Shown piece after piece: positions 19,197 through 37,189 of a stretch of DNA of 50,636 nucleotides (position 1 is the stretch's first letter; each line of letters begins with the position of its first letter). A program made the translations under genes and the position numbers. This DNA is from an uncultured Rhodocyclaceae bacterium (GTDB lineage Bacteria; Pseudomonadota; Gammaproteobacteria; Burkholderiales; Rhodocyclaceae), in NCBI GenBank assembly GCA_907163075.1, contig CAJQTY010000003.1:1-50636 (forward strand), read 5' to 3'. Under the pieces are notes generated by a model. The model searched no databases. It saw only the letters and a program-made list of their open reading frames with translations, and was not told where the DNA came from.

Positions 19197-19496
19197 ATGA
19201 GTCATGTGACGCTTTCCGATGCCGAGTGGATCAACTTGAACGTGCTTGCCGTCATTCATGCGGGTCTTCAGCACGACCGGCCTTCGACCTGCTGCAAGTT
19301 TGCACTCGACGTCAAACAGGCCGACTACCTCAATGGATTAAGTCTCGGCGATCTGTGGTCTCTGGTAATTCACGTGGGTGACACGACCCTGTTCCCTCCA
19401 CGCGCCGATCTGCTGACCTTGTTGACTATCCCACGGCCATTGGCTGGACCGTTGGCGCTGGTCCATCCCCCCACTCCGATGGGAATCCGCCTTTAG
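19197..19496 (+). CDS. FlhD-like activator subunit (SetD/AcaD type)
   Basis: 99 residues. The region INLNVLAVIHAGLQHD...CCKFALDVKQADYLNGLSL follows the E. coli FlhD pattern (DINLSYLLLAQ..., FRLGI, LAALTL) through about residue 65, with a divergent proline-rich tail. Together with the next gene it should form a FlhD-FlhC type complex, as SetCD does in SXT/R391 and AcaCD in IncA/C, which switches on conjugation operons with sigma-70 RNA polymerase. GGAGGAT lies 8 bases before the ATG at 19198. Its place just upstream of the transfer genes supports the master-activator role. Confidence 0.75.
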   Translation: MSHVTLSDAEWINLNVLAVIHAGLQHDRPSTCCKFALDVKQADYLNGLSLGDLWSLVIHVGDTTLFPPRADLLTLLTIPRPLAGPLALVHPPTPMGIRL

Positions 19497-19508
19497 CACC
19501 GAACGCCG

Positions 19509-20147
19509 ATGTCCACCCGAGGCGACCGGCATCTGTGGGCCATTCAATTGGCAAAGCACCTGGCCGCGCTTGGTGCTCGACTGAAAACGATCCATCTCAT
19601 CACCGGCATTCAACCTCGCCAGGTACAGAGTCTGTTCTTCCCCGATGCCCGCTCCATCCCACGCGGACGCGCCCCCGATTCAGCCGAGTGGTACCACGGA
19701 GCCAATCTCATCCTGCGTACCGATGCCTGCATCATCGGCGCCAAGTACAAACAATTGCGCAACCAAGGGCTCACCGCTGGCGAATCCCTGATCCTTGCCT
19801 ACCGATCCTACCAGGCGGCCACGTTACCGCCGTACCGTATCAGTCTCGACCGTGCCTTCAATCTTGTTTCCTACATTGACGGCATCTGGCTGGCTCGCGA
19901 GCCGACGCTGTCCATTTTGACCTGCTCGGCCTGTAACTGTGAGTTCATAGCGGCCGTCGGCACCGTGACGCCACCCGGCGAAGCGTGCCTTTTCTGCAAG
20001 CTGGTGGAACGTTTCCATGTAGACCATCGCATCCAGGCGTCCTACCCGGTTCACCCCGTCATCGACATGGCCGAACATCAATTGGGAATGCTCGCGCTCT
20101 TGCACAAGCTGAACCCCGGTGCCGAAGGCAATACCCCCAACGAATAG
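19509..20147 (+). CDS. FlhC-like transcriptional activator (SetC/AcaC type)
   Basis: 212 residues with clear FlhC-family text: AIQLAKHLAALGARLKTIHL at 11-30 (E. coli IQLAMELITLGARLQML), SLILAYRSY near 93-101, DRAFNLVSYI near 114-123, and a zinc site with C139-x2-C142 and C160-x2-C163, almost the same spacing as in FlhC. FlhC supplies DNA binding in the heterocomplex. It follows the FlhD-like gene by 12 bases and precedes traI by 78 bases. Known relatives in SXT and IncA/C elements are required for transfer. Target operators were not identified here. Confidence 0.85.
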   Translation: MSTRGDRHLWAIQLAKHLAALGARLKTIHLITGIQPRQVQSLFFPDARSIPRGRAPDSAEWYHGANLILRTDACIIGAKYKQLRNQGLTAGESLILAYRSYQAATLPPYRISLDRAFNLVSYIDGIWLAREPTLSILTCSACNCEFIAAVGTVTPPGEACLFCKLVERFHVDHRIQASYPVHPVIDMAEHQLGMLALLHKLNPGAEGNTPNE

Positions 20148-20225: not shown

Positions 20226-21896
20226 ATGGCCGCCACACCAACACCTATCAGTTACTACCCAGCCTCAGACCCGGGCTTCGCCGCACTGCCGGTCAATGAT
20301 CTGCTGGCCAACGAAGCGGACCTGATCGCACGCATCAAGTTATGCTACGGCACTGATCGGGACAGTTTCGAACGCGACGTGCTGCCGCTGGTGCGCCGCT
20401 ATTCCGCCTGCGTTCATCTGTTACCGGCAACTGCCGACAACTACTTCAGCACGCCCGGTGGACTCTTGCGGCTTGGTCTGGAGACCGCTTTCTTCAGTCT
20501 ACAAGGGACCGACGCGCACATCTTCTCGGGGCAGATGAGCATCTCGGCCCGCCGACAACTGGAACCGCGCTGGCGGCATGCGACCTTCATTGCTGGCCTG
20601 TGCTGCGAACTGCATCGACTGATGAGTCATGTCATCGTCACCAATGCCGTCGGCGACACTTGGCCGGCCTTTCTGTTGCCACTGGCAGACTGGCTGGCGG
20701 CCCGTAGCTCGGAGCGCTACTTCCTGCGCTGGCGCCCTCACGCTGTCGAAACACGCGGATTGGGCCTGTTCGCCCTACCCCATGTGGTGCCGCCTGCGGT
20801 AATTGCTGACCTATCCGAGGGCAACACAGTCATCGTGCCGCACCTGTTGGCCAGTATCAGTGGCATCCCGGTCTATCGCGAACACAACATCCTGGACGAA
20901 CTTGTCCGCCGCTCGCTGGCGTTGGTCATCGACCGCAACCTGGCGGCCAGCGCCGACCGCTACGGTTCGCCACAGTATGGATCACATTTGGAACGCTATC
21001 TGGTCGATGCCCTGCGACGGTTGGCCAGTGACGACTCCGCCTGGGTCGCCAATCGCGAGAAATCTCGACTATGGTTCGGGCAGGACGGACTGTTCCTGAT
21101 CTGGCCCGGTGCGGCCGAGGATGTCCACCAGTTGCTCGAGGCCGATCAACTGGCCGGCATTCCCAAGGCTCCCGAAACCATGCTGGAACTCCTCATAGCC
21201 GCTGGGGTATTCGAAGCGGCAGCGGCGAGCCGCTCGACCTGGTCCATCCAGCCGCCCGGTGCCAGGATCCCGTTGGAAGCCGTCAAGCTCTCGGCGCCGG
21301 ACATTCTCCTCGCGGGGATCGATCCACCACCGGCCGCTCTGCTCCAGGCGCTCGAATTTACGCCGATGCAGACCCCTGCCCCAGTTAATCAGCAAAAGTC
21401 AGCACCTCCGCCAGCCCCGGTGAAAATCGGCACACAGTTGTCGCTGATTCCTCCGCCTGAACCCGTTGCCAACGGTGAGACACTGTCGCTGCCGGTCGTA
21501 GAAACGCCCAAGCCTGCCTTGTCGGAATCTGTTTCAGCATCGCCCTCTGCGCGATTCGGCCTGCAGGCCCCGATGCGCTTGACTCAACTGGTACGAGATG
21601 TCCTGGCCGATGCTGTCCGTACGCTCAATGATGACCTGGGTCCGGCCACCGTCTGCACTATCGCCCAAGGGGTGTTCGTGCCTCTCGAGGAATTTGCACG
21701 ACACGGTGTCCAGCCCTCGCTGGCCATGCGTGCGCTCATGGAAACGAACATGCTCGTAAACACGAGCAGCGACGGCCCGCCGACGCTGTCGCGCGAATTC
21801 AATGGCAAACCTGCCATCGGCATCGTGCTTGACCCACGCTACGTCGATGGCCTCGATCTGGCCGGCTTTGCCGCACCACCTGCGGAGAAAAACTGA
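20226..21896 (+). CDS. traI: TraI-like MOBH-family protein with degenerate metal motif
   Basis: 556 residues: an N-terminal TraI_2 (HD-like) domain to about 320, a proline-rich linker near 380-440, and a C-terminal TraI_2_C-type winged-helix domain near 440-550. In MOBH relaxases the motif is H-Q-x2-P-A-S-E-x-H-H-H-x3-G-G-x3-H; here the matching text is HLLPATADNYFSTPGGLLRL at 64-83, so the three histidines read NYF and the last one L. The HD step (AGLLHDxGK in relatives) reads AGLCCELHR at 123-131. The fold seems kept and the metal ligands lost. It overlaps nothing upstream and is followed one base later by traD. It may be an accessory protein rather than an active relaxase. Confidence 0.8.
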   Translation: MAATPTPISYYPASDPGFAALPVNDLLANEADLIARIKLCYGTDRDSFERDVLPLVRRYSACVHLLPATADNYFSTPGGLLRLGLETAFFSLQGTDAHIFSGQMSISARRQLEPRWRHATFIAGLCCELHRLMSHVIVTNAVGDTWPAFLLPLADWLAARSSERYFLRWRPHAVETRGLGLFALPHVVPPAVIADLSEGNTVIVPHLLASISGIPVYREHNILDELVRRSLALVIDRNLAASADRYGSPQYGSHLERYLVDALRRLASDDSAWVANREKSRLWFGQDGLFLIWPGAAEDVHQLLEADQLAGIPKAPETMLELLIAAGVFEAAAASRSTWSIQPPGARIPLEAVKLSAPDILLAGIDPPPAALLQALEFTPMQTPAPVNQQKSAPPPAPVKIGTQLSLIPPPEPVANGETLSLPVVETPKPALSESVSASPSARFGLQAPMRLTQLVRDVLADAVRTLNDDLGPATVCTIAQGVFVPLEEFARHGVQPSLAMRALMETNMLVNTSSDGPPTLSREFNGKPAIGIVLDPRYVDGLDLAGFAAPPAEKN

Positions 21897-21897: not shown

Positions 21898-23805
21898 ATG
21901 CTGATTCGACGTTACGAAATGCCGTGGCGCCGAGCCTACGAAGTTTATTCCGGCCTCGTCTGGTGGCTGGCTCTACTGTATTTCGTGAGTGTGGGCGTGG
22001 TCGGTTCACTTCCCCGGCAACTAGCGTTGCCGCTATCCCTACTCTGCTTCTCGATGGGTGTACTACGGATCGCTCAGGCTTTACGCATGCTGATCTTGCG
22101 CGCTTCCCTCGGCGGACGTGGCATCGAGATCATTGGCACCGATGAACTGAGCAGGTGGTGCAAGGACCCGGCCTCGGTGTTCCTGGGGTTCGGCTTCGAA
22201 TGGCGGCCAGAGCATTCGCAACGGCTCTACGAACTCGCCAAGATCAACTATCAGGACTACGCCGTTTCACCGTGCCTGCTGCAACTCCTGGGCTATGACA
22301 ACAAGCCTCAGCCCGATGCCGAAATCGGTCTGCCCTACATCCATGGCGTCGAACCAAAGGAAGTCCCTCTGCACCGACCGCTGCAGAACTTCGAGGGCGG
22401 CACCCTGCTGGTCGGAACAACCCAATCCGGCAAAGGGGTAGCGTTGGCCAACCTGATCACCCAGGCCATCCGGCGCGGCGACGTGGTGATCGTCATTGAC
22501 CCGAAGAACAGCCGCCGGCTCAAGCGCGTGGTCGAGCGCGCCTGCGCAGACTACCGCGAGCCGGACACTTTCATGGAATTCCACCCCGCTTTTCCGGAAC
22601 GCGGGGTACGACTCGACTTCACCTTCAACTGGCAGAAACCCACCGAAATCGCCTCGCGTATCCAGTCGATCATGCCACCGGACACCGCCGGCGCGTTTTC
22701 GGCCTTCGGCTGGGATGCGGTCAACGTCGTGGTGCAGGGTCTGGTCGAAATCGAAGAGCGACCGAACCTGATGAAGCTCACCAAGTACATCGAAGGCGGC
22801 ATCGAGCCGGTACTGGAAGGATCGCTGCGCCGCTTTTATGACCAGACGCTGGGCGCGGGCTGGCGCGAACTGCCCGAGATGAAAAAAATGCTGCACGAGG
22901 CCCATCGCGGCAACATGAAACGGCCGTCAGAAGCGGCCAGCGCCGACCTGATGGCCTTCGTCGCTTACTACGAGCACCACATTGCGCAAAACCAGCGCAA
23001 CAAGGTCATCGACGCCCAGGTGCGGACTTTCCGCCACAATCGCGAGCATTACCAAAAGATCACCGCCAACCTGCTGCCCATCCTGTCGATGCTTACCTCG
23101 GGCGACCTCGGACGCAGCCTCTCGCCCGACCCGTTTGATGCGGACGACACGCGGCCGATCATGAATTTCGAGAAAATCGAGCGCGCCGGTCATGTGCTCT
23201 ACATGTGCCTCGATTCACTGCCCGATCCGTCCGTCGCCTCAGCCATCGGTGCCCTGGCGCTCGCTGATCAGGCGGCGCGCGCCGGCATGCGCTACAACCT
23301 GGGCAGCTACCAGCGTATCGCGCTGTTCGTCGATGAAGTGTCCAATGTCATCAACCAGCCGCTGATCGAGATTCTCAACAAGGGCGCCGAAGGCGGGATT
23401 TTCACCACCTGTGCAATGCAGACCCTGGCCGATCTGGCCAAGCGGTTGGGCAGCGAGAATGCGGCGCGCATGGCGCTGGGCAACTTGAACAACCTGATCG
23501 CGTTGCGCACCAAAGACCGACCGACACAGGACTTCGTCGTCGAGACCTTCGGCAAGACGGCCATCCACACGGTACGGGTTGGTCTGAGCCACGGCTCGGA
23601 TACCCATCTCGGCGACTTCTCGTCGAGCTATTCCACCCAGCTTTCCGAGAGTTTCGAGGAGATGGTGCCGGCCGACGTGCTGGGCAAACTGCCCAATCTC
23701 CAGTATTTCGCCTCGGTATCCGGGGGGCGCATCATCAAGGGCCGGTTTCCGATCCTCGATCCAGATGCAGCCCCGCACCGTGCCCCCGCGATGGCGGCAG
23801 CATGA
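21898..23805 (+). CDS. traD: Type IV coupling protein TraD
   Basis: 635 residues, the membrane-anchored ATPase that brings the relaxosome to the secretion channel. Two hydrophobic helices lie at about 18-38 and 43-66. Walker A GTTQSGKG is at 173-180, VIVIDPKN at 197-204, and a Walker B-type IALFVDEVSN near 474-483. The C-terminal part carries the typical GRIIKGRFPIL. The start at 21898 follows a GGAGA site within the traI 3' end; the longer frame reads into traI sequence. Most similar in organisation to SXT/IncA/C TraD. It overlaps the next gene by 4 bases. Confidence 0.95.
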   Translation: MLIRRYEMPWRRAYEVYSGLVWWLALLYFVSVGVVGSLPRQLALPLSLLCFSMGVLRIAQALRMLILRASLGGRGIEIIGTDELSRWCKDPASVFLGFGFEWRPEHSQRLYELAKINYQDYAVSPCLLQLLGYDNKPQPDAEIGLPYIHGVEPKEVPLHRPLQNFEGGTLLVGTTQSGKGVALANLITQAIRRGDVVIVIDPKNSRRLKRVVERACADYREPDTFMEFHPAFPERGVRLDFTFNWQKPTEIASRIQSIMPPDTAGAFSAFGWDAVNVVVQGLVEIEERPNLMKLTKYIEGGIEPVLEGSLRRFYDQTLGAGWRELPEMKKMLHEAHRGNMKRPSEAASADLMAFVAYYEHHIAQNQRNKVIDAQVRTFRHNREHYQKITANLLPILSMLTSGDLGRSLSPDPFDADDTRPIMNFEKIERAGHVLYMCLDSLPDPSVASAIGALALADQAARAGMRYNLGSYQRIALFVDEVSNVINQPLIEILNKGAEGGIFTTCAMQTLADLAKRLGSENAARMALGNLNNLIALRTKDRPTQDFVVETFGKTAIHTVRVGLSHGSDTHLGDFSSSYSTQLSESFEEMVPADVLGKLPNLQYFASVSGGRIIKGRFPILDPDAAPHRAPAMAAA

Positions 23806-24425
23806 TCCGCGTCGTCACGGTAGTGTCGCTGGTGATTCTCCTTATCCTGGTGTTGTATGTGCCTGCGGTTCATCCGCCGCAACGCTTCCTGGCGCAGCTG
23901 CGCGCCGAACAGGAGGTAGCCACTGCGTACTGGGGTGCCGAGCCCGCCATCCGCATGCTGAATCGGGCGGTGAACATGCAGGCGGCAATGACAGGCGTCA
24001 CTCCGATTCCCGCGGCCAAGGATGCGCCGTCCATAGCCGACGTAAACGGCGCGGTGTCACGGGAAATGTCCTCGGTCAATCAGCGGCTTTTCAACAACAG
24101 CTACTTTCGTTCTGTGGACGCCTTGCTACTACTCGCCAGTTATCGGCTGTCCACCCTGCTCGAATGGCTACCCTGGCTGGCCGCATTCGTTCTGACGGCG
24201 ATAGTCGACGGTGGATTCACACGGTTGATCAAAGCCAAGGAGTTCCGGCAACACGATCCGGAAATGTTCGCGCTGCATGCCAGCCTCGGCATCGTGGTGG
24301 TGTGTGCGACCGTCATCGGCTTCGTGCTGCCGGTGACTCTGCATCCGCTGTTACTGCCATGCGTGCCGCTGGTGGTTGGCGTGCTGGCGGGACGCGCGCT
24401 GGGGTGTTTTCATCGGCGGGGCTAG
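23802..24425 (+). CDS. traJ: TraJ-like membrane protein (DUF4400 type)
   Basis: 207 residues with an N-terminal membrane helix (about 4-22), a periplasmic-looking segment (about 30-100), a hydrophobic pair near 105-145, and two further helices near 170-205. In SXT/R391 and IncA/C elements a DUF4400 protein follows traD in this position and is called TraJ or s043; here it overlaps traD as ATGA. Its exact role is unknown, and a link between coupling protein and channel is the usual suggestion. Confidence 0.8.
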   Translation: MIRVVTVVSLVILLILVLYVPAVHPPQRFLAQLRAEQEVATAYWGAEPAIRMLNRAVNMQAAMTGVTPIPAAKDAPSIADVNGAVSREMSSVNQRLFNNSYFRSVDALLLLASYRLSTLLEWLPWLAAFVLTAIVDGGFTRLIKAKEFRQHDPEMFALHASLGIVVVCATVIGFVLPVTLHPLLLPCVPLVVGVLAGRALGCFHRRG

Positions 24426-25693: not shown

Positions 25694-26191
25694 ATGTTCA
25701 CCACCACACCGACGACTCGCCTGCACATCACCACACTGCCCTCACAGGAGACCGGCCCGCAAGATGTCATCGAAACACGCCTGTGGCTTAATGAGCACGA
25801 CTGGCTCTATGGCCTGCTGCGCAGTGAAGACAACGTGTCGCCAACTTTCCGCTTTCCTGACCTGATCAGCGCCTGCATCTCGCTGGTTTTCGCGGATCAG
25901 GATGCCTCTGCGCGTATCTTCCAGTTTCTCGGAACCAAACTGGTTCTTCGCTCGCCTCAAACGCCACGCCGCCGCGAATCGATGTGGCGGCCGCAATACC
26001 AGTTGCTTTTGGACCTGCAGCGCTCACCGGCCAACCGGCACCCTAACCCCAAGTTCCAACTCGACCAACTGACGACAGCCTGCGTCGCCCTATGCCAAGA
26101 GTTGGATAAATCGGGTGAAAGCATCTTGCAGCAAGCACGCCGCAACATGGCAGCGCGAACACAGCAGGGACGGACAGCGCTACCAAGTTGA
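25694..26191 (+). CDS. Protein of unknown function with a twofold internal repeat
   Basis: 165 residues, soluble, no signal peptide. Two segments look alike: FRFPDLISACISLVFADQD near 53-71 and FQLDQLTTACVALCQELDK near 118-136, each followed by helix-rich text, suggesting a duplicated small helical unit. The ribosome site AGGTAAG precedes the ATG. It stands alone between the opposite-strand membrane pair and the lytic transglycosylase, in the plus direction of the tra genes. No family is recognised; a small DNA-binding or accessory transfer protein is possible but unproven. Confidence 0.65.
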   Translation: MFTTTPTTRLHITTLPSQETGPQDVIETRLWLNEHDWLYGLLRSEDNVSPTFRFPDLISACISLVFADQDASARIFQFLGTKLVLRSPQTPRRRESMWRPQYQLLLDLQRSPANRHPNPKFQLDQLTTACVALCQELDKSGESILQQARRNMAARTQQGRTALPS

Positions 26192-26395: not shown

Positions 26396-26935
26396 ATGCG
26401 TCTGGCGCAACTTGCAGCCTGGGCCGTCCTGGCAACCACGCCCAACTGGGCGTGGGCTTGCTGGGACGATGCTGCCCAGCGCTACGGAGTATCAGCCGAC
26501 CTGCTTTATGCCATGGCCCGGGTCGAGTCAAACTTGAACTTCAAGGCCGTCAATCGTTCGCACATCCAACGCACTGGTTCCTACGACATCGGGTTGATGC
26601 AGGTCAACAGCAGCCATCTTTCGACTTTGTCTCGTTACGGCATCAAGGAAGTTGATCTCTTCAATCCCTGTACCAACATCCAGGTCGGCGCCTGGCTCCT
26701 GGCCGATCTCTTTTCCCGCCATGGAGAGACCTGGGATGCTGTCGGTGCCTATAACGCCTCCTGCTCGCAACTCAAAGAAGAGGCGTGCGCTGCGGCACGC
26801 GCCAAATACGCCTGGCAGGTGTACCGCCAATTGCCCGCGCAACGTCGCGTCTGGCCTGTCACGGGGATGCCGGTAGTCAGGCAGACGAACCCCGCTGAGG
26901 CGTTCGCCCTGATGATGGTGAAGGTGTCGCCATGA
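26396..26935 (+). CDS. Lytic transglycosylase of the transfer operon
   Basis: 179 residues with a signal peptide (cleavage likely after AWA, residue about 21) and an SLT domain: catalytic glutamate E44 in ARVESNLN, GLMQVNSSHL near 68-77, and AVGAYNASC near 115-123. It cuts peptidoglycan to make room for the mating channel. In SXT-like elements a similar enzyme is encoded with the transfer genes. GGAG lies 7-10 bases before the ATG. Its stop overlaps the next gene's start as ATGA. First gene of the long T4SS operon. Confidence 0.92.
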   Translation: MRLAQLAAWAVLATTPNWAWACWDDAAQRYGVSADLLYAMARVESNLNFKAVNRSHIQRTGSYDIGLMQVNSSHLSTLSRYGIKEVDLFNPCTNIQVGAWLLADLFSRHGETWDAVGAYNASCSQLKEEACAAARAKYAWQVYRQLPAQRRVWPVTGMPVVRQTNPAEAFALMMVKVSP

Positions 26936-27588
26936 AGGCACACATCCTGAGCCGGAGTGCACTCGGCCTTATGGTCTGCGGCACACTCCTTGCCGCATCG
27001 TGCAGCTTGTGGCGTACACAGGTAACTTCCAATCTCCCACTGGACACGCCCGCAGCGGCGCCTGCACAACTGGCCCAAGTCCGTTTCGGCCGCCAGGTCG
27101 TGTTTGCGCACTGTGTACCTCCAGCATGCCCTGTGCGTACACCAAAGACGCTTGCACCCAAATCACCAGGCCAGTCTATCGACCGCGAATCCATCTCGCC
27201 TGCCCCGATCCTGAAAAACCCCATCCCCAAGGCAGAATTCCCACGCACCGTCATCGTGCAATTCGGTCTCGCCAGCGCAAAGCTGAGCACCACTGCCCAG
27301 GCCCAACTGAACGACGCAAAAAGTGACCTGCGCATGGCGCGCCGTATCACGATCTTCGGCCGCACCGACAGCACTGGCCCATTGGCATTCAACGAAGAAT
27401 TGGCTCTGGCGCGCGCCCTCGCGGTTCGCGATTACCTGCACCAGAGGCATCCGACGTTGGCGGCCCGTCTGACGCTGAAGGCACAAGGCGCGTGCTGCTT
27501 CATCGCGTCGAACGACACCGTCGCCGGCCGCACGCAGAACCGTCGGGTCGAAGTGATTGTTCACAGGAACGAGGACGACCCACCATGA
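26932..27588 (+). CDS. OmpA/MotB-like lipoprotein
   Basis: 218 residues. The N-terminus MKAHILSRSALGLMVCGTLLAASC is a signal with a lipoprotein-like AAS-C, followed by an extended linker. The C-terminal 100 residues form an OmpA-type peptidoglycan-binding domain: IVQFGLASAKLS, GRTDSTGPLAFNEELALARA and GRTQNRRVEV. It would anchor the transfer apparatus to the cell wall. Such a protein is not a standard member of the F operon but occurs with related elements. Two cysteine pairs (LWRTQ... and GACC) are present. It overlaps the transglycosylase gene by 4 bases. Confidence 0.8.
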   Translation: MKAHILSRSALGLMVCGTLLAASCSLWRTQVTSNLPLDTPAAAPAQLAQVRFGRQVVFAHCVPPACPVRTPKTLAPKSPGQSIDRESISPAPILKNPIPKAEFPRTVIVQFGLASAKLSTTAQAQLNDAKSDLRMARRITIFGRTDSTGPLAFNEELALARALAVRDYLHQRHPTLAARLTLKAQGACCFIASNDTVAGRTQNRRVEVIVHRNEDDPP

Positions 27589-27721
27589 GACCGAACATAG
27601 CATTCGCTGATTTCGCTGTCCTTTACCCGTCGAGCGCTCGCGCTCACACCCGCTGGCCTATCCCTATGCCCACCTGCTTCGATGCCCTCATTCAACACCC
27701 AAATATTGCACGGAGGTTTTC

Positions 27722-28072
27722 ATGAACACCGCCACTCTTGTTTCGTCCACCCGCATTTCCTTACGCAGACCGCTGACTATCGCGCTGCTGCTGGCAATGG
27801 CTGTTCTCGGTCTCGGCACCGCTTTTCCCGGCTACGCCCTGGATCTGGTCGCCTTTACCGGCATCACCGGACCGCTCACCTCGGCCCTGACCCAGATCGC
27901 CGCACTCGGACCGGGAATCAAGGCGCTGGTCGGTTTCGTCGGTTTCGTGGTCGCGCTCATCTCGCTGTCCGCGCTGCGCAACTTCGGCCCCGTCCTGTTC
28001 TACATCGGCCTGGCCATTTTCGCGGCGGTGGGTCTGGTGATCGCCGGCGCGATCATGGGCGCTGTGATTTGA
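27722..28072 (+). CDS. traA: Conjugative pilin precursor TraA
   Basis: 116 residues. A long signal (residues 1-39, ending PGYA) precedes a mature part of about 77 residues with two strong hydrophobic helices (about 66-84 and 90-114) and a short hydrophilic loop with LRNFGP, the pattern of F/VirB2-type pilins. GGAGG lies 8 bases before the ATG. The 130-base gap upstream contains a small inverted repeat (GAGCG-CTCG-CGCTC near 27635-27648) and may hold its own promoter. Next to traL, as in F. Confidence 0.85.
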   Translation: MNTATLVSSTRISLRRPLTIALLLAMAVLGLGTAFPGYALDLVAFTGITGPLTSALTQIAALGPGIKALVGFVGFVVALISLSALRNFGPVLFYIGLAIFAAVGLVIAGAIMGAVI

Positions 28073-28102
28073 ACTGCGGGCATCGGCCTTCAGGAGATCG
28101 GC

Positions 28103-28402
28103 ATGCAGGCGGACACCTATATCCCACGACGCCTTGATGACCAGTGGAAGATCGGCTTCTGGGATATCGATGTCGCCGCGCCGATCCTGTTCATGTTCTT
28201 TGTCGGCTACCTGTCCGGCAAACGAATGTCCTTTGCTGTCTGCATCGTACTTGGCCTCTTCGTTTCGCGCTGGATCGCACGTCTGAAGGCGGACAAGCAC
28301 CCGGCCTTTGCCATCCACTGGCTGTACTGGCACCTGCCCGCCAGTCCGCTGACAGCGATGCGCGCGACACCGCCCTCGCACCTCCGCCGCATGGTCGGCT
28401 GA
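28103..28402 (+). CDS. traL: Type IV secretion protein TraL
   Basis: 99 residues. A short cytoplasmic N-terminus (YIPRRLDDQWKIGFWDID) is followed by two membrane helices (about 29-47 and 49-62) and a C-terminal HWLYWHLP motif, matching TraL/VirB3-like proteins that help assemble the pilus at the inner membrane. GGAGA lies 7 bases before the ATG. Between traA and traE as in other F-type systems. Confidence 0.92.
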   Translation: MQADTYIPRRLDDQWKIGFWDIDVAAPILFMFFVGYLSGKRMSFAVCIVLGLFVSRWIARLKADKHPAFAIHWLYWHLPASPLTAMRATPPSHLRRMVG

Positions 28403-28418
28403 GCTTGGGAGAAAACCC

Positions 28419-28985
28419 ATGGACTTCGAACGGCTCAACGCCGACATCAAGGTAATGCGCCGGCGCAATCGGGGACTCGGCCTGGCGGTCGGCGCACTGG
28501 CCGCCGGTCAGATCCTCGCCCTGCTGGTCATCGTTAACCTGCTCGGAACAGTGCGTACCGTGGTCGTACCGCCATCAATCGACAAAACCTTCTGGGTCAC
28601 CCGCGACAAGGCCAGCAACGAATACCTCGAACAGATGGGCAGTTTCATCGCCTGGCTGGTACTCGACGTGACGCCGGCCTCGATCGACTGGAAGAAGGAC
28701 ACCCTGCTCGGCTACGTCGAACCCGATCAGTACGGCCCCCTCAAGACGCGCCAGGAAGTTGAAGCTGAACGTCTGAAGCGCATCAACGCGGCCACCGTGT
28801 TCGCACCCCAGCAACTGGTGCCCAGCGAAGAAGGACAGAGCGTCGTCATCCGCGGACGCTTGCGTACCCTGGTCAACGGCTTCGAAACCGCCAACGATCT
28901 CAAAGCCTATCGGGTCGAGTTCAGCCATGCCGGCGCACGCATGCATCTGAAGAGTTTCAAGGAGATTCCCAATGCCGGCAACTGA
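28419..28985 (+). CDS. traE: Type IV secretion protein TraE
   Basis: 188 residues, single N-terminal membrane helix (about 22-44) and a periplasmic VirB8-like domain: VPPSIDKTFWV near 50-60, YLEQMGSFIAWL near 69-80, and RGRLRTLVNG near 144-153. It is a core scaffold of the inner-membrane complex. GGGAGAAAA precedes the start. Its 3' end overlaps traK by 14 bases. Confidence 0.95.
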   Translation: MDFERLNADIKVMRRRNRGLGLAVGALAAGQILALLVIVNLLGTVRTVVVPPSIDKTFWVTRDKASNEYLEQMGSFIAWLVLDVTPASIDWKKDTLLGYVEPDQYGPLKTRQEVEAERLKRINAATVFAPQQLVPSEEGQSVVIRGRLRTLVNGFETANDLKAYRVEFSHAGARMHLKSFKEIPNAGN

Positions 28986-29862
28986 TCCCATCCGGGCCCC
29001 ATCCCTGCCTGTTCTCGTCCCGACGCCTCAGCGCAGCGGAGCCATGAGTGCCGCGATCACGGCCATCGCAAGCACCCTTGTCGTCGCGATGACGACCACG
29101 TCGGCTCAGGCCCTGCAGATCGTCGAGGCCAGCGACGGGGTGTCCGTCGAAGCCATCCTGTCGATCAAGGAGCCGACCCGTATCCGCATCGAAGGGGCAC
29201 CGATCACCGATGTCTTCGGCAACATCCATTCGAGTCACTGTGGTGCGCCGCCGGCATTCCCTGCCATGCCGGGAACGGCGCCGACAAGTGCCGTTTCACC
29301 GGCCATCAACCCAGCCGGCGAGATCGTACTGGAGTGCGACCGCGACAAGGGCGAAATCTACGTTCGCCCGGTTGGCGACTCCGCGAAGCCGATCAATCTG
29401 TTCGTCTCCTCGGCGAATTCCACATACACGCTGCTGCTGCGCCGCTCGGATACGCCCGCCGACACCATCGTCATTCGTGACAGAACACCGAAGGCCCTGA
29501 AGTCCGCGACGTCGAGCCAAAACTCGGCCGGACCCGCGCCTAATCCGGTACGTGCGATGAAGGCACTGTTGGTAGCCATGGTGTCGGACCGCGTACCGCC
29601 CGACATCCGGGTCGAAGAAACGCAGGGCTCGATCCCGCTGTGGGCCGAAGCGCGATTCTCGCGGATACGCCAGTACGAAGGGCGCGGCCTGATTGGCGAG
29701 AAGTACCTGCTGCAGAACATCAGTAGCGCACCCATGGTCCTGGCCGAACAGGAGTTTGATCGCGAGCACGGCAGCGTCGTCGCCATCGCTGTCGAGCAGC
29801 ATAACCTGCGCCCCGGCGAGACCACCAGCGTCTATGTCATCCGGCGCGGAGAGCGGCCATGA
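28972..29862 (+). CDS. traK: Type IV secretion secretin-like TraK
   Basis: 296 residues. AAGGAGA 7 bases upstream supports the ATG at 28972; the secretion signal (MSAAITAIASTLVVAMTTTSAQA) then starts at residue 25, so either the N-terminus is extended or the start is the ATG at 29044. The mature part has the VirB9/TraK beta-rich fold, with RIRIEGAPITDVFGN near 63-77 and a C-terminal LAEQEFD...VAIAVEQHNLRPGETTSVYVI. It forms the outer ring of the core complex with TraV and TraB. Confidence 0.92.
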   Translation: MPATDPIRAPSLPVLVPTPQRSGAMSAAITAIASTLVVAMTTTSAQALQIVEASDGVSVEAILSIKEPTRIRIEGAPITDVFGNIHSSHCGAPPAFPAMPGTAPTSAVSPAINPAGEIVLECDRDKGEIYVRPVGDSAKPINLFVSSANSTYTLLLRRSDTPADTIVIRDRTPKALKSATSSQNSAGPAPNPVRAMKALLVAMVSDRVPPDIRVEETQGSIPLWAEARFSRIRQYEGRGLIGEKYLLQNISSAPMVLAEQEFDREHGSVVAIAVEQHNLRPGETTSVYVIRRGERP

Positions 29863-31220
29863 ACACGCCTCATCAGCCTCTGCGCGGCCTGCCGCAGCAG
29901 TTGTTGCAACACCTGTCGCCCAGGCAACGCCAATACGCCATGCTCGGCACCCTCATGGCAGGCGGAATCGGGCTGCTCTGGTCGATTTTCGCGTTCACCG
30001 GCAACAGTCCACAAACCGGCGTCGCCCAAGCCTCGGCCGGGCAAGCGAGTGCGGTCACCAACATCGGCGTGATGCCACCCGGCGCTCAGGTCAATCCGGT
30101 GGACCAGTGGGTCGGGACGGCCGGACGCAAGCTCGCCCAGTACGAGAACGAGCGCGAAGAGCAAGGACGGCTGAACAAGGATCGTCAAACCTTCGAAGCG
30201 AAGACGCTGCAACGTTTCGCGGAACTGGAACAGCAACTCACCTCGACGCAGCAGGCAGCCGCCGCCCCGGTGGCTCGGGCCCCCGCTGCAATTACGCCGA
30301 CTACCCTGCCTCCTGCGGCAAGCCTGCCACCGGCCCCGCCGCCGCCCAAGGCTTCTCCTACCGGGGTGATGCCGAGCGGTTTCCCGGGTGAGGGGCTGGT
30401 ACAACCGGTGCCCGCGATCACGCGCGTCACCATCGCGGACCGATCCCTGCCCGCCAACAATGGAGCGAAAACGGAGCACACCTCGGGCACCGGCACCCAA
30501 ACCGCCGCCCGGAACGTCTCGACTTTCCTGCCGGTGAGTTTTACACGCGGCACGCTGCTGGGCGGCCTGGATGCCCCCACGGGCGGTCAGTCCCAGTCCA
30601 ACCCCCACCCGGTCCTGATCCGTCTCTCGGACAACTCGGTCTTGCCCAACCGCTTTCGCGCCGAATACCGCGAGTGCTTCGTGATCGCGGCGGGCTACGG
30701 CGACATCAGTTCCGAGCGCGCCTATCTGCGTACCGAGAGCCTGTCCTGCGTGCGCACCGATGGCGCCACACTGGAAGTAAAGATTCAGGGCTCGATCTAT
30801 GGCGAGGACGGCAAGGTCGGCATGCGCGGGCGTTTGGTCACCAAGCAGGGCCAGATGCTCGCCAATGCCCTGCTGGCCGGTGTGGTTAGCGGCATCGGCC
30901 AGGGCCTGGCCACGTCGTCGACGGAATACAGCACCTCAGCCTTGGGCACGGTCGCCAGCGCCTCCGGGTCCGATGCCTACCGCGCCGGTCTCGGCACCGG
31001 CGTTGGCAAGGCCCTCGACCGACTGGCCCAGTACTACATCAAGCTCGCCGAAAACACCTTCCCGATCATCGAGATCGACGCCGGCCGCGAAGTCGACGTG
31101 GTGATCACCCGAGGCGTGCACATCGACGTACCCATGACGACGGGGGACCCGTCTTCCGCGCGCCTCGCCAACGCCCCAGAAACCCGTTACCTGGAGACCT
31201 CCGACGATGGCAACTACTGA
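29859..31220 (+). CDS. traB: Type IV secretion protein TraB (VirB10-like)
   Basis: 453 residues: an inner-membrane helix at about 29-47, a coiled-coil stretch near 80-130 ([19 protein letters not shown]), a proline/alanine-rich spacer near 135-175, and the C-terminal TrbI/VirB10 beta-barrel domain ([16 protein letters not shown] near 228-243; [19 protein letters not shown] near 273-291). It spans both membranes. It overlaps traK as ATGA and the next gene by 14 bases. Confidence 0.95.
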
Positions 31221-32037
31221 ATTCGTGCCCGGCCGACTTGTTGTTGCGGCGCTGGTCACCGCACTGGCGGGCGCCGTCCCACTGGCGGATGCCGCGACCA
31301 TCGACGAAAGCCGGCTGCTTGCCTCCCTGCAGAAAGCCCACCCGGGCACGCACTTCACCGAAATCACCCGTTCGCCCCTTCCCGGCCTCTACGAAGTCTG
31401 GATGAATGGCAATGTGGCCTATGTGTCGGCCAGAAGCCCACGCTACTTCCTCTTCGGACACCTGTTCGACACCAAGACCCTACGCGACATGACCGGCCCG
31501 AAGCTGGCGCAGGCCATCGGCACCAACGGCCCAAGTCGCGTGACGACAGAAACAGCGCGCGCAGTAGCGGCACCCATTCAGTTCGACCCGTTGCCGCTGG
31601 CCGACGCGATCAAGACAGTACGCGGCACCGGCCAGCGTAAGGTGGCCGTCTTCAGCGACCCCGGTTGCCCCTACTGCAAACAGTTGGAGTTTGAACTGGC
31701 CACGCTTGATGACATCACCGTCTACACCTTCCTCGTGCCCTTCCAGGGCGAGGCCAAACCCATCGCGGTCTGGTGCGCGACGGATCGCGCAGAAGCCTGG
31801 CAACGCCTGATGCTCCATGACGACGAGCACTTGCTCAACACCGGGGCCGCCTGCGAACACCCCATCGTCCGCAACCTGGCGCTGGCCCGCCAACTCGGCA
31901 TCCAGGGCACGCCCACCCTGATCTGGGCGGATGGCACGCGTACCGACGGCGTCGTCGGACGTGCCGTGCTGGAAGCGCGACTCGCACAGGCCTCTTCACC
32001 AACACCTCCGCAAACCACACCGGAGAAGCAGCCATGA
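31207..32037 (+). CDS. DsbC-like thiol:disulfide isomerase of the transfer operon
   Basis: 276 residues. A signal peptide (about 1-30), a DsbC-type dimerisation domain (31-125), and a thioredoxin fold with CPYC at 154-157 and the cis-proline GTPTLIW near 242-248. It should shuffle disulfides in the cysteine-rich periplasmic subunits TraN, TraU and TraH. SXT/IncA/C-type operons carry a dsbC at this point. The ATG overlaps the traB end. Confidence 0.9.
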
Positions 32038-32615
32038 AATCGCTTGTCCTGCGATTTGGAGCCATCAGCCTGCTGTTACCGTTGAGCGCGTGCATGAACA
32101 TGTCCGGACTGGGTGGCGACTCGACGTACGCCTGCAAGGCCCCCGACGGGGTGGCCTGCGATTCGGTATCCGGCACCTACGCCAACGCGGTTCACGACAA
32201 GCTACCCAGCCAACAGCGGCAGCGATCCGCCACCACCCAAAAGGAATATTCCGAAGTAAAACGCCCCACGGAGACCATGCGCGCCGCATCGTCGGTAGCG
32301 GCCGGCGATCCCGTTACCGCCACCAGCCCCTTGCGCTCCCAGGCCCGCGTTCTGCGCTTGTGGATCAAGTCGTGGGAAGACACCGATGGCGATCTCTACG
32401 ACCAGGGTTACATCTACGTGCAGGTAGACAACGGCCAGTGGCTGATCGACCACGTGCAGCGTCAGATCCGCGACGCCTATGCGCCACTGAAGCCACCACC
32501 CAAGCCGGCCAACGACAGCGCTGCCGAGCCGAATCCAGCCGCCAACACGTCGAACTCGCCGATGGTGCCACTGCGTCCCCCATCGACCGGGTTCGGCGTC
32601 ACCCCGGTGCAATGA
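32034..32615 (+). CDS. traV: Type IV secretion lipoprotein TraV
   Basis: 193 residues. The signal ends LSAC, with lipidated cysteine at residue 20. The conserved TraV stretch [20 protein letters not shown] lies at about 30-49. The C-terminal half ([24 protein letters not shown]) is also family-typical, and the last 40 residues are proline-rich. It forms the outer-membrane ring with TraK and TraB. It overlaps the dsbC-like gene as ATGA. Confidence 0.93.
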
Positions 32616-32622
32616 GGCCTTC

Positions 32623-35190
32623 ATGAACACACCGAACTGCAACGCCCCCATGATCCCTCAGCGCAACCGCTGGTACGCGCCGCGCTTTCCCTTCAGCCAA
32701 CCGGTGGATACGCCGGCCGAACAGTTTGCCAATTGGCTGCCCTACTCCGCCTACCTCGCTACCGAGAAGATCTTTGTTAACCGCGACAGCCTGGGCGTCA
32801 TGCTCGAACTGATGCCGCAGTCGGGTGCCGACGAACGCATGGCGGAAGTGCTGATCTCGCTCTACGCCAACTGCCCACCTGGCACCGGTATCCAGTTTCA
32901 TCTTTTCGCTTCGCCTCAGGTGCGCACGCAGTTACACCACTACGCCAACCTGCGCATCGAGGACGACGATCAGGCCGAGCAGGCCAGGCAGTGGGGGCGA
33001 CCCGCGCGCAACGCCAACCTGTTTCGAAAGCTTGCCCGCCAGCGCGCAGGCCACCTGCTGCGCGGTGCGCAGAAATCGCTGACGGCCGGCTTCCACTACA
33101 CGATCCGGGATTTTCGTCTGATGCTCAGCGTCGCGTTTGCCGGCGACCCCGAGGATCTCAACACGCGCGACGAACTGATGTCGCTGCGCGACTCGATGTC
33201 GTCCACCCTGCGCTCCGCCTCGCTGCCCAACCGCGTCTGCGATGCCGCCGATCTGATCAACTGGTGCGCACTGTTCACCAATCCCGACCGTATCTCCCAG
33301 ACCGACGCGCCGGACCTGCACTACGACGATGGACGGGAACTACGCGACCAGATCGTGGACTTCGACACCATCCAGGACCCGCATCCAAGCGGCCTTACCT
33401 TGTGGAAGGAAGCCAGCCCCGACGTGCTGGAGGCGCGCTTCTACTCGATCAAGAGTTTTCCGGAACGCTTTGCCCTGTGGCAAATGGGTTCCCTGATCGG
33501 CGACCTGATGCAGCCGGCGCTGCAGTACAGCGCACCGTTTCTGCTGACCCTGGGCGTGCACGTGCTCGACCCCAACGTCACCAAATCGGTGGTCACCGCC
33601 AACCACGTGCGCGCAACGCAGAACGCCCGGTCGAAGATGGCCGACGTCATGCCCGACGTGAATAAAAAACTCCAGGACTGGACGGCGGCAGCCGATGTCC
33701 TCGATACGGGCGGCAACCTGGTCAGCCTCTATCACCAGCTGGCGCTGTTCACCACCCCCGACAAGGCCGTCGCCGCACACGAGGCGGCCAACGCCATCTG
33801 GCGCGGACGCGGGTTTCAGTTGAACGCCGATGCCTACATGCACCGCCAGGCCCTGCTCGCCAGCCTGCCGATGACGCTGACCGAGAAATTTCACAAAGAC
33901 CTGGTCAAGATGCGTCGCGTCACGCGCAAGACCATGGCCAATGCCATCCACATGGCCCCGCTGATCGCCGAATGGCGCGGCACGCGCACCCCGGCCCTGA
34001 TTTTTGGTGGTCGGCGCGGTCAGTTGATGACCCTGGACGTTTTCGACAACGACCTGGGCAACGCCAACTTCGCCATCATCGGCGCCCCCGGCTCGGGCAA
34101 ATCGGTGCTGATGAACGAGATGGCCTGGTCCTACCGGGCCATCGGCGCCAAGGTCTGGATGCTCGATCTGGGACGCAGCTTCGAGAAACTGTGCCGCAAG
34201 GCCAAGGGCACCTATATCGAGTTTCGACCCGACGTCAACATCTGTCTCGATCCGTTCACTCACATCGTCGACATCAACGAAGACATCGACATGCTGGTGC
34301 CAGGGATCGCCAAGATGTGCTCGATGCAGCACACCCTGGAAGAAGTCCAGTACAAGGCGATCTCGGCCATGGTTCTCAAGCTCTGGCGGGAGTACGGCAA
34401 CGAACTGCGCATCACCGGCCTGCGCGATGCCTTCAAGACGGGGACCATCGAGGAACTGGGCATGGTCGGCGACCAGCGCATCAAGGACCTGGCGATCATG
34501 CTCAATCCCTACTCGCGGGGTGGGCAGTACGAGCGCTTCTTCGAAGGGCGCAACAACATCGATTTTTCCAACGATTTCATCGTCATCGAGAACGAGGAAC
34601 TGAAGCGCCGCCCGGACCTGCACGCGGTGGTCAACATTCTGCTCCTGCATCGCATTACCGGCGAGATGTACCTCACTCGCAATCGGCGCAAAGTACTCTT
34701 TGTCGATGAGTTGAAGCAACAACTCGGCGATATCGGCGCCAACGATCCGGTCAAGGCCGCAGTAATCGAGGAAGCGGCCCGACGCGCCCGCAAATACGGC
34801 GGCGCGCTCGGCACGGCAACGCAAAGTGCCGACGACTTCTACGGCTCGGCGCAGATGGAAGCCGCTTTCAACTGCTCGGACTGGGTCTTCCTGCTGCGCC
34901 AGAAACCGGAATCCATCGAAATGCTGGACCGCAAGGGCCGACTCACCATGGACGAACCGAAGAAGCGCCTGCTCAATTCGCTGCGCACCGAGGCCGGTGT
35001 GTTTGCGGAAGTCTACATTTCCTCGCCGGTCGGTGAAGGCGTGGCGCGCAACATCCTCGACCCGGCCACCCACCTGCTGTTCTCCAACAAGCTGGAAGAT
35101 AACGCGCCGATTGACGAATTGCGCGCCCAGGGCCTGTCCATCGACGAGGCGATCAGCGAACTGTTACAGCGTCGCGGGCATGCGACATGA
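32623..35190 (+). CDS. traC: Type IV secretion ATPase TraC
   Basis: 855 residues, VirB4-class cytoplasmic ATPase that powers pilus assembly. The N-terminal TraC_F_IV domain (about 25-450) is followed by the P-loop GAPGSGKS at 487-494 and Walker B VLFVDEL near 691-697. The late motif ATQSADDFYGS near 728-738 is typical. Length matches IncA/C and F relatives (about 800-880). It overlaps trbI by 4 bases. Confidence 0.96.
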   Translation: MNTPNCNAPMIPQRNRWYAPRFPFSQPVDTPAEQFANWLPYSAYLATEKIFVNRDSLGVMLELMPQSGADERMAEVLISLYANCPPGTGIQFHLFASPQVRTQLHHYANLRIEDDDQAEQARQWGRPARNANLFRKLARQRAGHLLRGAQKSLTAGFHYTIRDFRLMLSVAFAGDPEDLNTRDELMSLRDSMSSTLRSASLPNRVCDAADLINWCALFTNPDRISQTDAPDLHYDDGRELRDQIVDFDTIQDPHPSGLTLWKEASPDVLEARFYSIKSFPERFALWQMGSLIGDLMQPALQYSAPFLLTLGVHVLDPNVTKSVVTANHVRATQNARSKMADVMPDVNKKLQDWTAAADVLDTGGNLVSLYHQLALFTTPDKAVAAHEAANAIWRGRGFQLNADAYMHRQALLASLPMTLTEKFHKDLVKMRRVTRKTMANAIHMAPLIAEWRGTRTPALIFGGRRGQLMTLDVFDNDLGNANFAIIGAPGSGKSVLMNEMAWSYRAIGAKVWMLDLGRSFEKLCRKAKGTYIEFRPDVNICLDPFTHIVDINEDIDMLVPGIAKMCSMQHTLEEVQYKAISAMVLKLWREYGNELRITGLRDAFKTGTIEELGMVGDQRIKDLAIMLNPYSRGGQYERFFEGRNNIDFSNDFIVIENEELKRRPDLHAVVNILLLHRITGEMYLTRNRRKVLFVDELKQQLGDIGANDPVKAAVIEEAARRARKYGGALGTATQSADDFYGSAQMEAAFNCSDWVFLLRQKPESIEMLDRKGRLTMDEPKKRLLNSLRTEAGVFAEVYISSPVGEGVARNILDPATHLLFSNKLEDNAPIDELRAQGLSIDEAISELLQRRGHAT

Positions 35191-35555
35191 AAACGACCGT
35201 TCCCCAACTGCTAGGTCAGGGCTTGTTCTCCCTGTTTGTGGTGGCCATGGCGCTCGCCACCTACGACCGACTGGTATTGCGGCCGGCGCTGATCATCGGC
35301 ATGGTCGATGTGGCCGAGGTCTACCGGGCCAAAGAGGCCGAGTTCACCCAGATCCTCACCAAGGCCAGTTCGGCGGACGACCGGCAAAAAGCGCTGCTCA
35401 TGGCGCAAGCCTTTGCCCAACGTCTACCACTTGCCCTCGACGAGTTGCCTCGGGAATGCGGCTGCCTCGTGGTCCTCAGGACGGCGGTGGCCGGAGCGAC
35501 GCCGAACACCATCGACCTGACCGCCCGACTGCGCAGAAAAGTGGACGCCCCATGA
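35187..35555 (+). CDS. trbI: Type-F transfer protein TrbI-like
   Basis: 122 residues with one N-terminal helix (about 12-28) and a periplasmic domain containing AEVYRAKEAEFTQIL and a cysteine pair in PRECGCLVVL. It matches the size and position of F TrbI, which affects pilus extension and retraction. It overlaps traC and the next gene as ATGA on each side. Confidence 0.75.
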   Translation: MKTTVPQLLGQGLFSLFVVAMALATYDRLVLRPALIIGMVDVAEVYRAKEAEFTQILTKASSADDRQKALLMAQAFAQRLPLALDELPRECGCLVVLRTAVAGATPNTIDLTARLRRKVDAP

Positions 35556-36148
35556 ACTCCGCACCGGTCCAGCAAGCGGCTCCGCGTAGCGCGTCGATTC
35601 CCGTCCGAGGGCAGCGCGTCCTCAAGCCTTTCGCCGAGGTCTTGCGCCATGTTCGCTGGCACTGGCCCCTCTTCCTGCCAATCTTCGTAATCTGGGCCTT
35701 CGCCTACGTGCGCCTGTTCGTCGATCCGACGCCGCGCCTGCCGCTGCTCTTCAACCTGACACCGAGCCTGCCGTATCGTATGGCCGTGCTGAAGTACGGC
35801 GCACACACCTTGCGGCGGGGTGACGTCATTGTCTTCGCGTTTGCTGGTGAGGCGCAACAGCGTTATCCCGGCTTGCGCGGCCAGCCCTTCTTCAAAATCG
35901 TGCGAGGCATGCCGGGCGACGCCGTGACCGTCGCCGGCCGACAGGTAGCGGTTAACGGCGAGGACGTCGGGGTGGCCAAGACACAGGCCTACGACCATCG
36001 ACCGCTCACACCGATCATGCCGACCATCATCCCGCCCGGGCACTATTACGTGCAGGGCACCAGTCCCGACTCCTTCGACTCGCGCTACCAGGACAGCGGA
36101 CTGATCCGGGCCGAGCAGGTGATCGGCGTCGCGATCCCGTTATTTTGA
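35552..36148 (+). CDS. S26-family signal peptidase (TraF/TrhF type)
   Basis: 198 residues with one membrane helix at about 39-57 and the S26 catalytic pair: Ser72 in LTPSLPYRM and Lys115 in FFKIVRGMPGD, then VNGEDVG and a C-terminal GHYYVQGTSPDSFDSR. It is the type that processes or cyclises pilins in RP4 and IncH plasmids. The start at 35552 is decided by ATGA overlap with trbI; the longer frame upstream reads through traC in another frame. With TraA in the same operon it probably acts on the pilin. Confidence 0.88.
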   Translation: MNSAPVQQAAPRSASIPVRGQRVLKPFAEVLRHVRWHWPLFLPIFVIWAFAYVRLFVDPTPRLPLLFNLTPSLPYRMAVLKYGAHTLRRGDVIVFAFAGEAQQRYPGLRGQPFFKIVRGMPGDAVTVAGRQVAVNGEDVGVAKTQAYDHRPLTPIMPTIIPPGHYYVQGTSPDSFDSRYQDSGLIRAEQVIGVAIPLF

Positions 36149-36158
36149 GACGCACACC

Positions 36159-36557
36159 ATGCCCAGAGCCTTCCTCGCCTTTGCGTTCTTCGGCCTTTTG
36201 ACCAGTGCCGCCGCCGGCGCCCAAACCCGTCCGGCCCTTCCAACCTTCAAGGTGGCCCAAGACAGTACACCAGAAATTCAACGGAATCACCACGCCGACG
36301 CTATGCCGCTGGCCGACTATCTCGGCCTCCTGCGGCAAATCGCTCCCGCTGCCGAAGCGGGAACCAAGGATTATCTGGCTGCCTTCGAACGACGCTGCGG
36401 CCGGACACTCTCCACGACCGAACTGCGCCGCGCGATGTCGCAAGGCGACGGCGATCCGGTGCTGATGGGACTGATCCGCGCGAGTTACCAGCGGGATAGC
36501 GCTGCCCGCGAACAACTCGCCGGACAAATGAGTTGCCTGGGCAAAGGGGCACCATGA
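36159..36557 (+). CDS. Exported protein of unknown function in T4SS operon
   Basis: 132 residues with a signal peptide (cleavage likely after AAAGA, residue about 21). The mature protein is mostly helical, with two cysteines (RRCGRTLS and GQMSCLG) that may form a disulfide. No family recognised. It lies between the S26 peptidase and traW, overlapping traW as ATGA, and has codon use like its neighbours, so it is probably a working accessory subunit. Confidence 0.7.
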   Translation: MPRAFLAFAFFGLLTSAAAGAQTRPALPTFKVAQDSTPEIQRNHHADAMPLADYLGLLRQIAPAAEAGTKDYLAAFERRCGRTLSTTELRRAMSQGDGDPVLMGLIRASYQRDSAAREQLAGQMSCLGKGAP

Positions 36558-37189
36558 AACACCTCATCTCCTTCGTCTCACTGATGCTTGGTCTGATACT
36601 GGACACGACGGGCGTGCGGGCCATGGAACTGGGCTCCCTCGGTCCGACCTATGAGATCAGCGAGCCCCACCTGCTGCAGATGATCGAGCAGCGCCTGCGC
36701 GAAAAGGAACGCAACGGGGAACTCAAGCGCCTGGAAGAACAAGCTCTGGAGCGAGGCATTGCGACCGTGAAGAACCCGCCGCCGGTCGCGGGCCTGAACC
36801 CGACCGAAACAGCGCGAACCTTCTACTTCGACCCAGGCTTCACGCTCGACCGCAATCTCCTCGGTGCCAAAGGCGAACTGCTGTTTGCCGCCGGCACGTA
36901 CAAGAACCCGCTGGAGGTCGTGTCCTTGTCCCGTCACCTGCTGTTTTTTGATGCGCGCGACACGCGTCAAGTCAGCAAGGCGCGTCAGTTGATGGCGTTC
37001 TACCAGGGACAGGTGAAACCGATCCTGGTCGGCGGTTCCTACCTGGAGCTGATGAAGTCCTGGCGCCTGCCGATCTACTACGACCAGCAGGGGCGGCTCA
37101 CGCGACGCCTGGGCATCACCCGGGTGCCGGCACTGGTGTCGCAGGAAGGGCTGCGGCTGCGCATCGACGAACTGGCTCTCTCCCCATGA
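36554..37189 (+). CDS. traW: Type-F transfer protein TraW
   Basis: 211 residues from the ATG at 36554, which overlaps the previous stop as ATGA (the longer frame from 36533 is less likely). A signal peptide (about 1-23) is followed by the TraW core: LGPTYEISEPHLLQMIEQRL near 27-46, RTFYFDPGFTLDRNL near 86-100, and RLGITRVPALVSQEG near 180-194. It is needed for F-pilus assembly, working with TraU and TrbC. It overlaps traU by 4 bases. Confidence 0.94.
   Translation: MKHLISFVSLMLGLILDTTGVRAMELGSLGPTYEISEPHLLQMIEQRLREKERNGELKRLEEQALERGIATVKNPPPVAGLNPTETARTFYFDPGFTLDRNLLGAKGELLFAAGTYKNPLEVVSLSRHLLFFDARDTRQVSKARQLMAFYQGQVKPILVGGSYLELMKSWRLPIYYDQQGRLTRRLGITRVPALVSQEGLRLRIDELALSP

What the first reader, a model, noticed from the sequence alone, without database searches (positions are those of the whole stretch)
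20226..21896. TraI-like protein without the MOBH histidine and HD motifs
The canonical HHH is NYF, the last motif histidine is leucine, and the HD pair reads CE, while the fold and the next gene (traD) are kept. Either this subfamily uses another active site, or it is a structural accessory and the true relaxase is elsewhere or has been lost. This could be an unrecognised mobilisation system.
Basis: partly seen in the sequence, partly recalled or inferred. Interest (0 to 1): 0.75.

Follow-up and report, generated by a model that had tools for sequence, protein, structure and literature searches.

The report
DNA-transfer protein with dead active site
A protein that normally cuts DNA to start its transfer between bacteria has, in one large old branch of its family, lost its known cutting residues while staying strongly conserved, and a different kind of DNA-cutting enzyme often sits where a usual helper gene lies, so the cutting job may have changed hands.

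Summary
Window 20226-21896 encodes a 556-aa MOBH-type TraI (NCBIfam MobH 331 bits, cut-off 200) with NYF for HHH, Leu for the next His, CE for HD; a later His and Asp are gone too. Of 120 aligned MOBH proteins (window included), 26 have HHH, His and HD and 94 have none of them intact; none is mixed. With motif columns masked, the H-less proteins in a 47-row tree form one group (100/100), so one old event is likely. The HD part is the most constrained part (dN/dS 0.07-0.15): not a decaying gene. No D/E/H/Y reaches 90% conservation across deep H-less lineages. Two genes change with it: MobI (7 of 8 HHH plasmids, 0 of 10 H-less) is missing, and a tyrosine recombinase appears (9 of 10 H-less plasmids, 0 of 8 HHH; 14 of 14 close-relative genomes), in those genomes divergent from ParM across ~1.1 kb, the slot of MobI in SXT. 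Best reading: TraI is a non-cutting adaptor, and another enzyme, most likely this recombinase (compare MpsA of SGI1), starts transfer. Nicking and oriT are untested; dimer resolution is a serious rival role for the recombinase.

The parts
20226..21896 (+). H-less MOBH TraI (556 aa): HD-like domain without HHH/H/HD, low-confidence linker, C-terminal domain
20439..20447 (+). codons 72-74 (NYF) in place of HHH
20472..20474 (+). codon 83 (Leu) in place of the next motif His
20604..20609 (+). codons 127-128 (CE) in place of HD
20916..20918 (+). codon 231 (Leu) in place of the downstream Asp conserved in HHH proteins
21558..21893 (+). C-terminal region, residues 445-556
19197..19496 (+). 99-aa gene before flhC in H-less elements (called FlhD-like by position only)
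19509..20147 (+). FlhC-family regulator
   Evidence: PF05280
21802..23805 (+). TraD coupling protein (ORF overlaps traI; true start may be the later Met near 21898)
23802..24425 (+). DUF4400 protein (as TraJ, listed as Dtr auxiliary in Rts1)
   Evidence: PMC10838148 passages
25694..26191 (+). 165-aa gene (c27), in 7 of 10 H-less stretches compared and 0 of 4 HHH ones; no Pfam match
26396..46634 (+). F-type mating-pair genes: SLT, OmpA, TraE, TraK, TraB, DsbC-like, TraC, TraU, TrbC, TraN, TraF, TraH, TraG by family search (some below the curated cut-off); TraV and TraW by clustering with annotated genes; TraL and pilin not identified

Best explanation
The protein belongs to an old, still selected branch of MOBH TraI that lost its metal-dependent nuclease centre as a unit. 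It keeps the domain, the C-terminal part and the traI-traD-DUF4400 operon, so it most likely works as a relaxosome adaptor that binds transfer DNA or the nicking complex and docks it on TraD (inferred). The strand cut that starts transfer is made by another enzyme of the same element. The best candidate is the tyrosine recombinase 'c76' (428 aa in the window genome, G000:C2:648080-649366), divergent from ParM across ~1.1 kb that would hold oriT (inferred). Shown here: the loss, its grouping on one branch, purifying selection, the missing MobI, the presence and intact catalytic residues of c76. Inferred: adaptor role, nicking by c76, oriT in the ParM-c76 gap.
Against: No nicking, binding or transfer data exist here for any member. 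c76 could be a dimer-resolution recombinase paired with ParM. The Azonexus H-less plasmid gave no c76; Methylobacter's hit is weak, partial and has a stop; the G198 and G082 genes hold one stop each and G200's is in pieces. In 6 c76 plasmids (W04, W07, W09-W12) no ParM was found within the short flanks, and in pSTJ1 only by annotation. L248 has Ala for the second His of HxxRH. Related recombinases occur in 4 of 7 HHH genomes (G109, G028, G187 without ParM found nearby; G165 also carries an H-less TraI). MobI was found in only 1 of 3 HHH genomes. The c76 and MobI queries were each built from one side only, so sensitivity is uneven. E128 and N72 are invariant in the close clade and could matter there.
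Confidence: 0.4

Rival explanations
1. H-less TraI is a non-cutting adaptor, but the nicking enzyme is a protein other than c76 (for example DUF1173 or another hypothetical gene); c76 is a multimer-resolution recombinase that works with ParM.
For: A recombinase beside a partition gene fits dimer resolution. DUF1173 (Pfam model, so no query bias) occurs in 7 of 10 H-less and 1 of 8 HHH plasmids, and in 10 of 198 genomes, 8 of them among the 11 in which I read an H-less TraI. It has conserved Cys/His and a near-invariant GExK.
Against: DUF1173 is absent from three H-less plasmids and from G165, G174 and G126, and present in G048 and G134 without a TraI hit; its AlphaFold2 model failed (pLDDT 33), so no nuclease fold is shown. 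c76 tracks the trait better.
Confidence: 0.28
2. H-less TraI is still the relaxase, using a rebuilt active site (for example E128, H130, N72 or Y73 in the close clade).
For: N72 and E128 are invariant and Y73 and H130 nearly so in the 49-row alignment; the domain is under strong purifying selection.
Against: Y73 is Phe or His in Piscinibacter, Janthinobacterium, L120 and L127; none of these residues holds across the deep H-less lineages; the motif residues are all gone at once.
Confidence: 0.14
3. The H-less system no longer exports its own element: the machine is kept for another cargo, such as DNA release, protein export or helping other elements.
For: PF03432 and PF03389 give no match in the window genome, TraI_2 gives only this gene, and the TrwC hits are weak. 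MOB-suite of 10 H-less plasmids non-mobilizable.
Against: MOB-suite also of 8 HHH plasmids non-mobilizable, so its silence means little. The relatives lie on plasmids and in many genomes, which suggests transfer.
Confidence: 0.11
4. The H-less gene is a decaying pseudogene.
For: Loss of all known catalytic residues.
Against: Open frames in the 80 loci read, two of them cut by contig ends; dN/dS 0.07-0.15 in the HD part; one old origin.
Confidence: 0.02

Closest known systems
MOBH relaxase TraI of SXT/R391, IncC, Rts1 and the gonococcal genetic island
   Same: TraI_2 domain, position before traD and DUF4400, F-type operon, FlhC-type regulators in several
   Different: 3H and HD motifs absent; downstream Asp absent; MobI not found in the 13 H-less records searched
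SGI1 mobilisation module (MpsA/MpsB, proposed Tyr-recombinase relaxase, transfer through an IncC machine)
   Same: Suggested division of labour: a Tyr-recombinase-type enzyme starts transfer, MOBH TraI helps later; FlhDC-type regulators
   Different: Here TraI itself has lost its cutting motifs and lies in the same element; c76 was not compared with MpsA; MpsB and the sgm-sRNA were not sought
MOBM TcpM (pCW3) and MobK (pIGRK)
   Same: Tyr-recombinase-like relaxases as precedent (named in passages)
   Different: Other hosts and transfer systems; c76 has no shown nicking; no sequence comparison made here

Membership tests
MOBH relaxase | TraI_2/MobH sequence family | tested here: met
   PF07514 221 bits, NF041494 331 bits
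MOBH relaxase | 3H motif with following His | tested here: not met
   NYF and L83
MOBH relaxase | HD motif | tested here: not met
   CE
MOBH relaxase | HD-hydrolase fold | tested here: inconclusive
MOBH relaxase | Site-specific cleavage at oriT | not testable with these tools
   needs biochemistry
MOBH transfer module (SXT/IncC/Rts1) | traI-traD-DUF4400 order and F-type mating genes | tested here: met
   TraL and pilin not identified
MOBH transfer module (SXT/IncC/Rts1) | MobI | tested here: not met
   no hit in G000 or the 12 other H-less records; 8 of 11 HHH records hit, two of which supplied the query
Tyr-recombinase relaxase (MOBM/MpsA/MobK type), for c76 | Catalytic R-K-H-R-H-Y | tested here: met
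   invariant in the three aligned; complete in 28 of 29 readable loci, L248 differs, L268 not readable
Tyr-recombinase relaxase (MOBM/MpsA/MobK type), for c76 | oriT upstream of the gene | tested here: inconclusive
   gap of 1.11-1.29 kb with conserved blocks and one 8-bp perfect inverted repeat found in the G000 copy; no oriT shown
Tyr-recombinase relaxase (MOBM/MpsA/MobK type), for c76 | Required for transfer, nicks oriT | not testable with these tools
   needs mating and nicking assays

The most novel reading that the evidence does not exclude
A self-transmissible F-type system in which the relaxase gene became a pseudoenzyme adaptor and strand cleavage passed, once and long ago, to a tyrosine recombinase at a ParM-linked oriT: a relaxase function split into a cutter and a carrier.
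Probability: 0.3. Interest if true: 0.87.

Novelty: new variant of a known kind. Interest (0 to 1): 0.72.

Why it matters
The label 'MobH family relaxase' is taken as a sign of a cutting enzyme, and NCBI's model gives it to these proteins without the cutting motifs. If the reading is right, a widespread set of mostly betaproteobacterial elements uses an initiator outside the usual MOB lists, and the non-cutting job of TraI (handing DNA to the coupling protein) could be studied apart from cutting. The open question of how MOBH DNA, for which no covalent intermediate was detected (PMC12857230, passages), is recruited to the coupling protein would become directly testable.

Tried and rejected
Tyr-recombinase-like protein next to DUF1173 (324 aa, often ~10 kb upstream of traI, opposite strand): in 5 of the 6 NYF genomes among 198 (plus two weak hits elsewhere) and in 8 of 8 further ones, but it lacks the catalytic Tyr and His, so rejected as relaxase. 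DUF1173 as nuclease: AlphaFold2 failed. HHH control structure: the HHH query found no relative in viral contigs; the H-less and DUF1173 queries found none there either. Y73 as catalytic Tyr: not conserved in basal members. Catalogued relaxases in the window genome: PF03432 and PF03389 none; PF08751 gave three partial hits, one just over the cut-off; the one ORF I read looks, by recall, like an IS91-type transposase, the other two were not read; MOBV, MOBC and MOBT models were not searched. Cluster 40 was first thought to be MobI; its sequences look FlhC-like by eye. Searches failed or gave no result through script errors and were redone. Many antisense ORFs are artefacts. Rows: I left out L003-L008 as taken to be duplicates and L031 (no frame passed), L018 lacks the region, and L014 and L209 are the same plasmid, as are G046 and pSTJ1, so genome and plasmid counts overlap. 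Other TraI hits in G082, G046 and G174 were not all read. Papers, what I saw: passages of PMC4036041, PMC12857230, PMC5714925, PMC8716806, PMC9299015, PMC9345347, PMC10838148, PMC6414798; search listings only for the rest; Heilers 2019 is not held. No paper on a motif-less MOBH clade appeared in the listings of searches of the held open-access library. On re-checking I lowered the best explanation from 0.42 to 0.40 and the novel case from 0.32 to 0.30, because query rows were inside the counts, ParM was not found beside c76 in six plasmids, and the fold match is weaker than first written.

Full report
Check. The gene is at 20226-21896 (+), 556 aa. It scores 221 bits with Pfam TraI_2 and 331 with NCBIfam MobH, cut-off 200. 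Against the published MOBH motifs (PMC4036041, passages), HHH is NYF, the next His is Leu and HD is CE, while the frame around them (PA, GGL, EPRW) aligns without gaps. A later His (176) and Asp (231) of the HHH proteins are lost too.

Breadth. A genome scan found 133 relatives; the 80 best kept are 47-82% identical, by record title mostly from Betaproteobacteria, and none has the motifs intact. Of 121 aligned MOBH proteins one lacks the region; of the other 120 (window included), 26 have HHH, His and HD, 94 have none of the three intact, and none is mixed. The rows are not independent (many close copies; L014 and L209 are one plasmid). Some copies keep one or two of the three His as relics (KHH, HHF, NHH). 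A careful tree of 47 rows chosen by hand, motif columns masked, puts all 26 H-less rows on one side of a branch, support 100/100, one change, in all 200 bootstrap trees. Some H-less rows are long branches, so their inner order is unsure, and the root is not inferred.

The element. traI is followed by traD, DUF4400 and most of an F-type set; TraL and the pilin were not identified. In the window genome the rest of the element is probably on contig C2: a 19-bp exact repeat links the 3' part of tRNA-Val at C3:53042-53060 with C2:644428-644446, an integrase (66.7 bits PF00589) lies beside that tRNA at C3:51619-52851, and both halves point the same way. That gives about 160 kb if the contig ends join, which I could not show. 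The genome has one TraI_2 protein and no PF03432 or PF03389 match.

What replaces the cutter. Gene content was compared between stretches of H-less and HHH elements. In SXT R997, ParM and mobI are divergent, 464 bp apart, with a small hypothetical gene between. MobI was detected in 7 of 8 HHH plasmids (two of them, R997 and Thiodictyon, supplied the query), 1 of 3 HHH genomes, 0 of 10 H-less plasmids and 0 of 3 H-less genomes. H-less elements instead carry a tyrosine recombinase, c76 (PF12834/PF12835): 9 of 10 H-less plasmids (two of them supplied the query; not Azonexus; Methylobacter only 4e-17, partial, with a stop), 0 of 8 HHH plasmids, 14 of 14 NYF genomes (G000 supplied the query; the G198 and G082 genes hold one stop each, G200's is in pieces), and G174 and G126. 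Fisher on 9/10 against 0/8 is 0.0004, with query rows inside. Four of 7 HHH genomes have a related recombinase: G165 also carries an H-less TraI on the same contig as a c76-ParM pair; G109, G028 and G187 show c76-like genes without ParM found nearby.

Where it sits. ParM lies divergently beside c76 in all 14 NYF genomes, in the Piscinibacter and Janthinobacterium plasmids and in G165; in pSTJ1 the annotation shows a ParM-like gene about 1.6 kb away; in six other plasmids none was found within the short flanks. The distance is 1.11-1.29 kb in the 17 loci measured, and nine aligned gaps share conserved blocks. G205, with two H-less traI loci, has two c76-ParM pairs. Catalytic R, K, HxxRH, H and Y are complete in 28 of 29 readable loci; L248 has Ala for one His; L268 is fragmented.

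Reading. SGI1 offers a precedent: MpsA, a Tyr-recombinase-type protein, is its proposed relaxase, SGI1 transfer occurs at lower frequency without IncC TraI, and its authors suggest TraI helps in unwinding or transport (passages of PMC9299015 and PMC6414798). The H-less elements look as if that split of labour became fixed inside one element. The adaptor role, the oriT position and nicking by c76 are inferences. The plainest rival is that c76 resolves dimers together with ParM and that the cutter is still unknown. DUF1173 is a weaker candidate: 10 of 198 genomes, eight of them among the 11 in which I read an H-less TraI, and 7 of 10 H-less against 1 of 8 HHH plasmids.

Caution. The H-less plasmids were taken from the best tblastn hits to the window protein and the HHH ones are a hand-picked spread, so the groups are not random samples and members are not independent. 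The c76 query came from H-less elements and the MobI query from HHH ones, so each search is more sensitive on one side. MOB-suite found another relaxase (MOBP) in 2 of 10 H-less plasmids, but it also of 8 HHH plasmids non-mobilizable, so its silence is weak evidence. The PLSDB gene tables of the Piscinibacter plasmid and pSTJ1, which may be incomplete, list mobH as the only relaxase.

Noticed in passing
window 9168-14261: Cobalamin-type genes (CbiD, CbiX, CbiQ matches) lie upstream of flhC-traI; if contigs C2 and C3 join, they are cargo of the element.
   Followed up: partly
L038:983-2215 (G000:C3:51619-52851) and tRNA-Val at C3:53037-53112: Probable integrase and attachment site at the right end of the element, with a 19-bp repeat at C2:644428-644446.
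   Followed up: partly
window 18735-19070: Short frame that resembles a piece of a tyrosine recombinase (by eye; no Pfam match), upstream of the flhD-like gene.
   Followed up: no
G000:C2:665842-667957: DUF1173 gene beside a tyrosine-recombinase-like gene that has lost its catalytic Tyr and His; the pair recurs in many of these elements.
   Followed up: partly
stretch C2 at 59054 (about G000:C2:679053 onward): A 4655-aa frame on the minus strand in the presumed cargo; not identified.
   Followed up: no
window 47278-48943: AbiEi-like gene (weak NCBIfam match, below cut-off) and a 358-aa partner after traG; a similar pair occurs in G096.
   Followed up: no
window 48962-50635: IS1634-family transposase at the right end of the window.
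   Followed up: no
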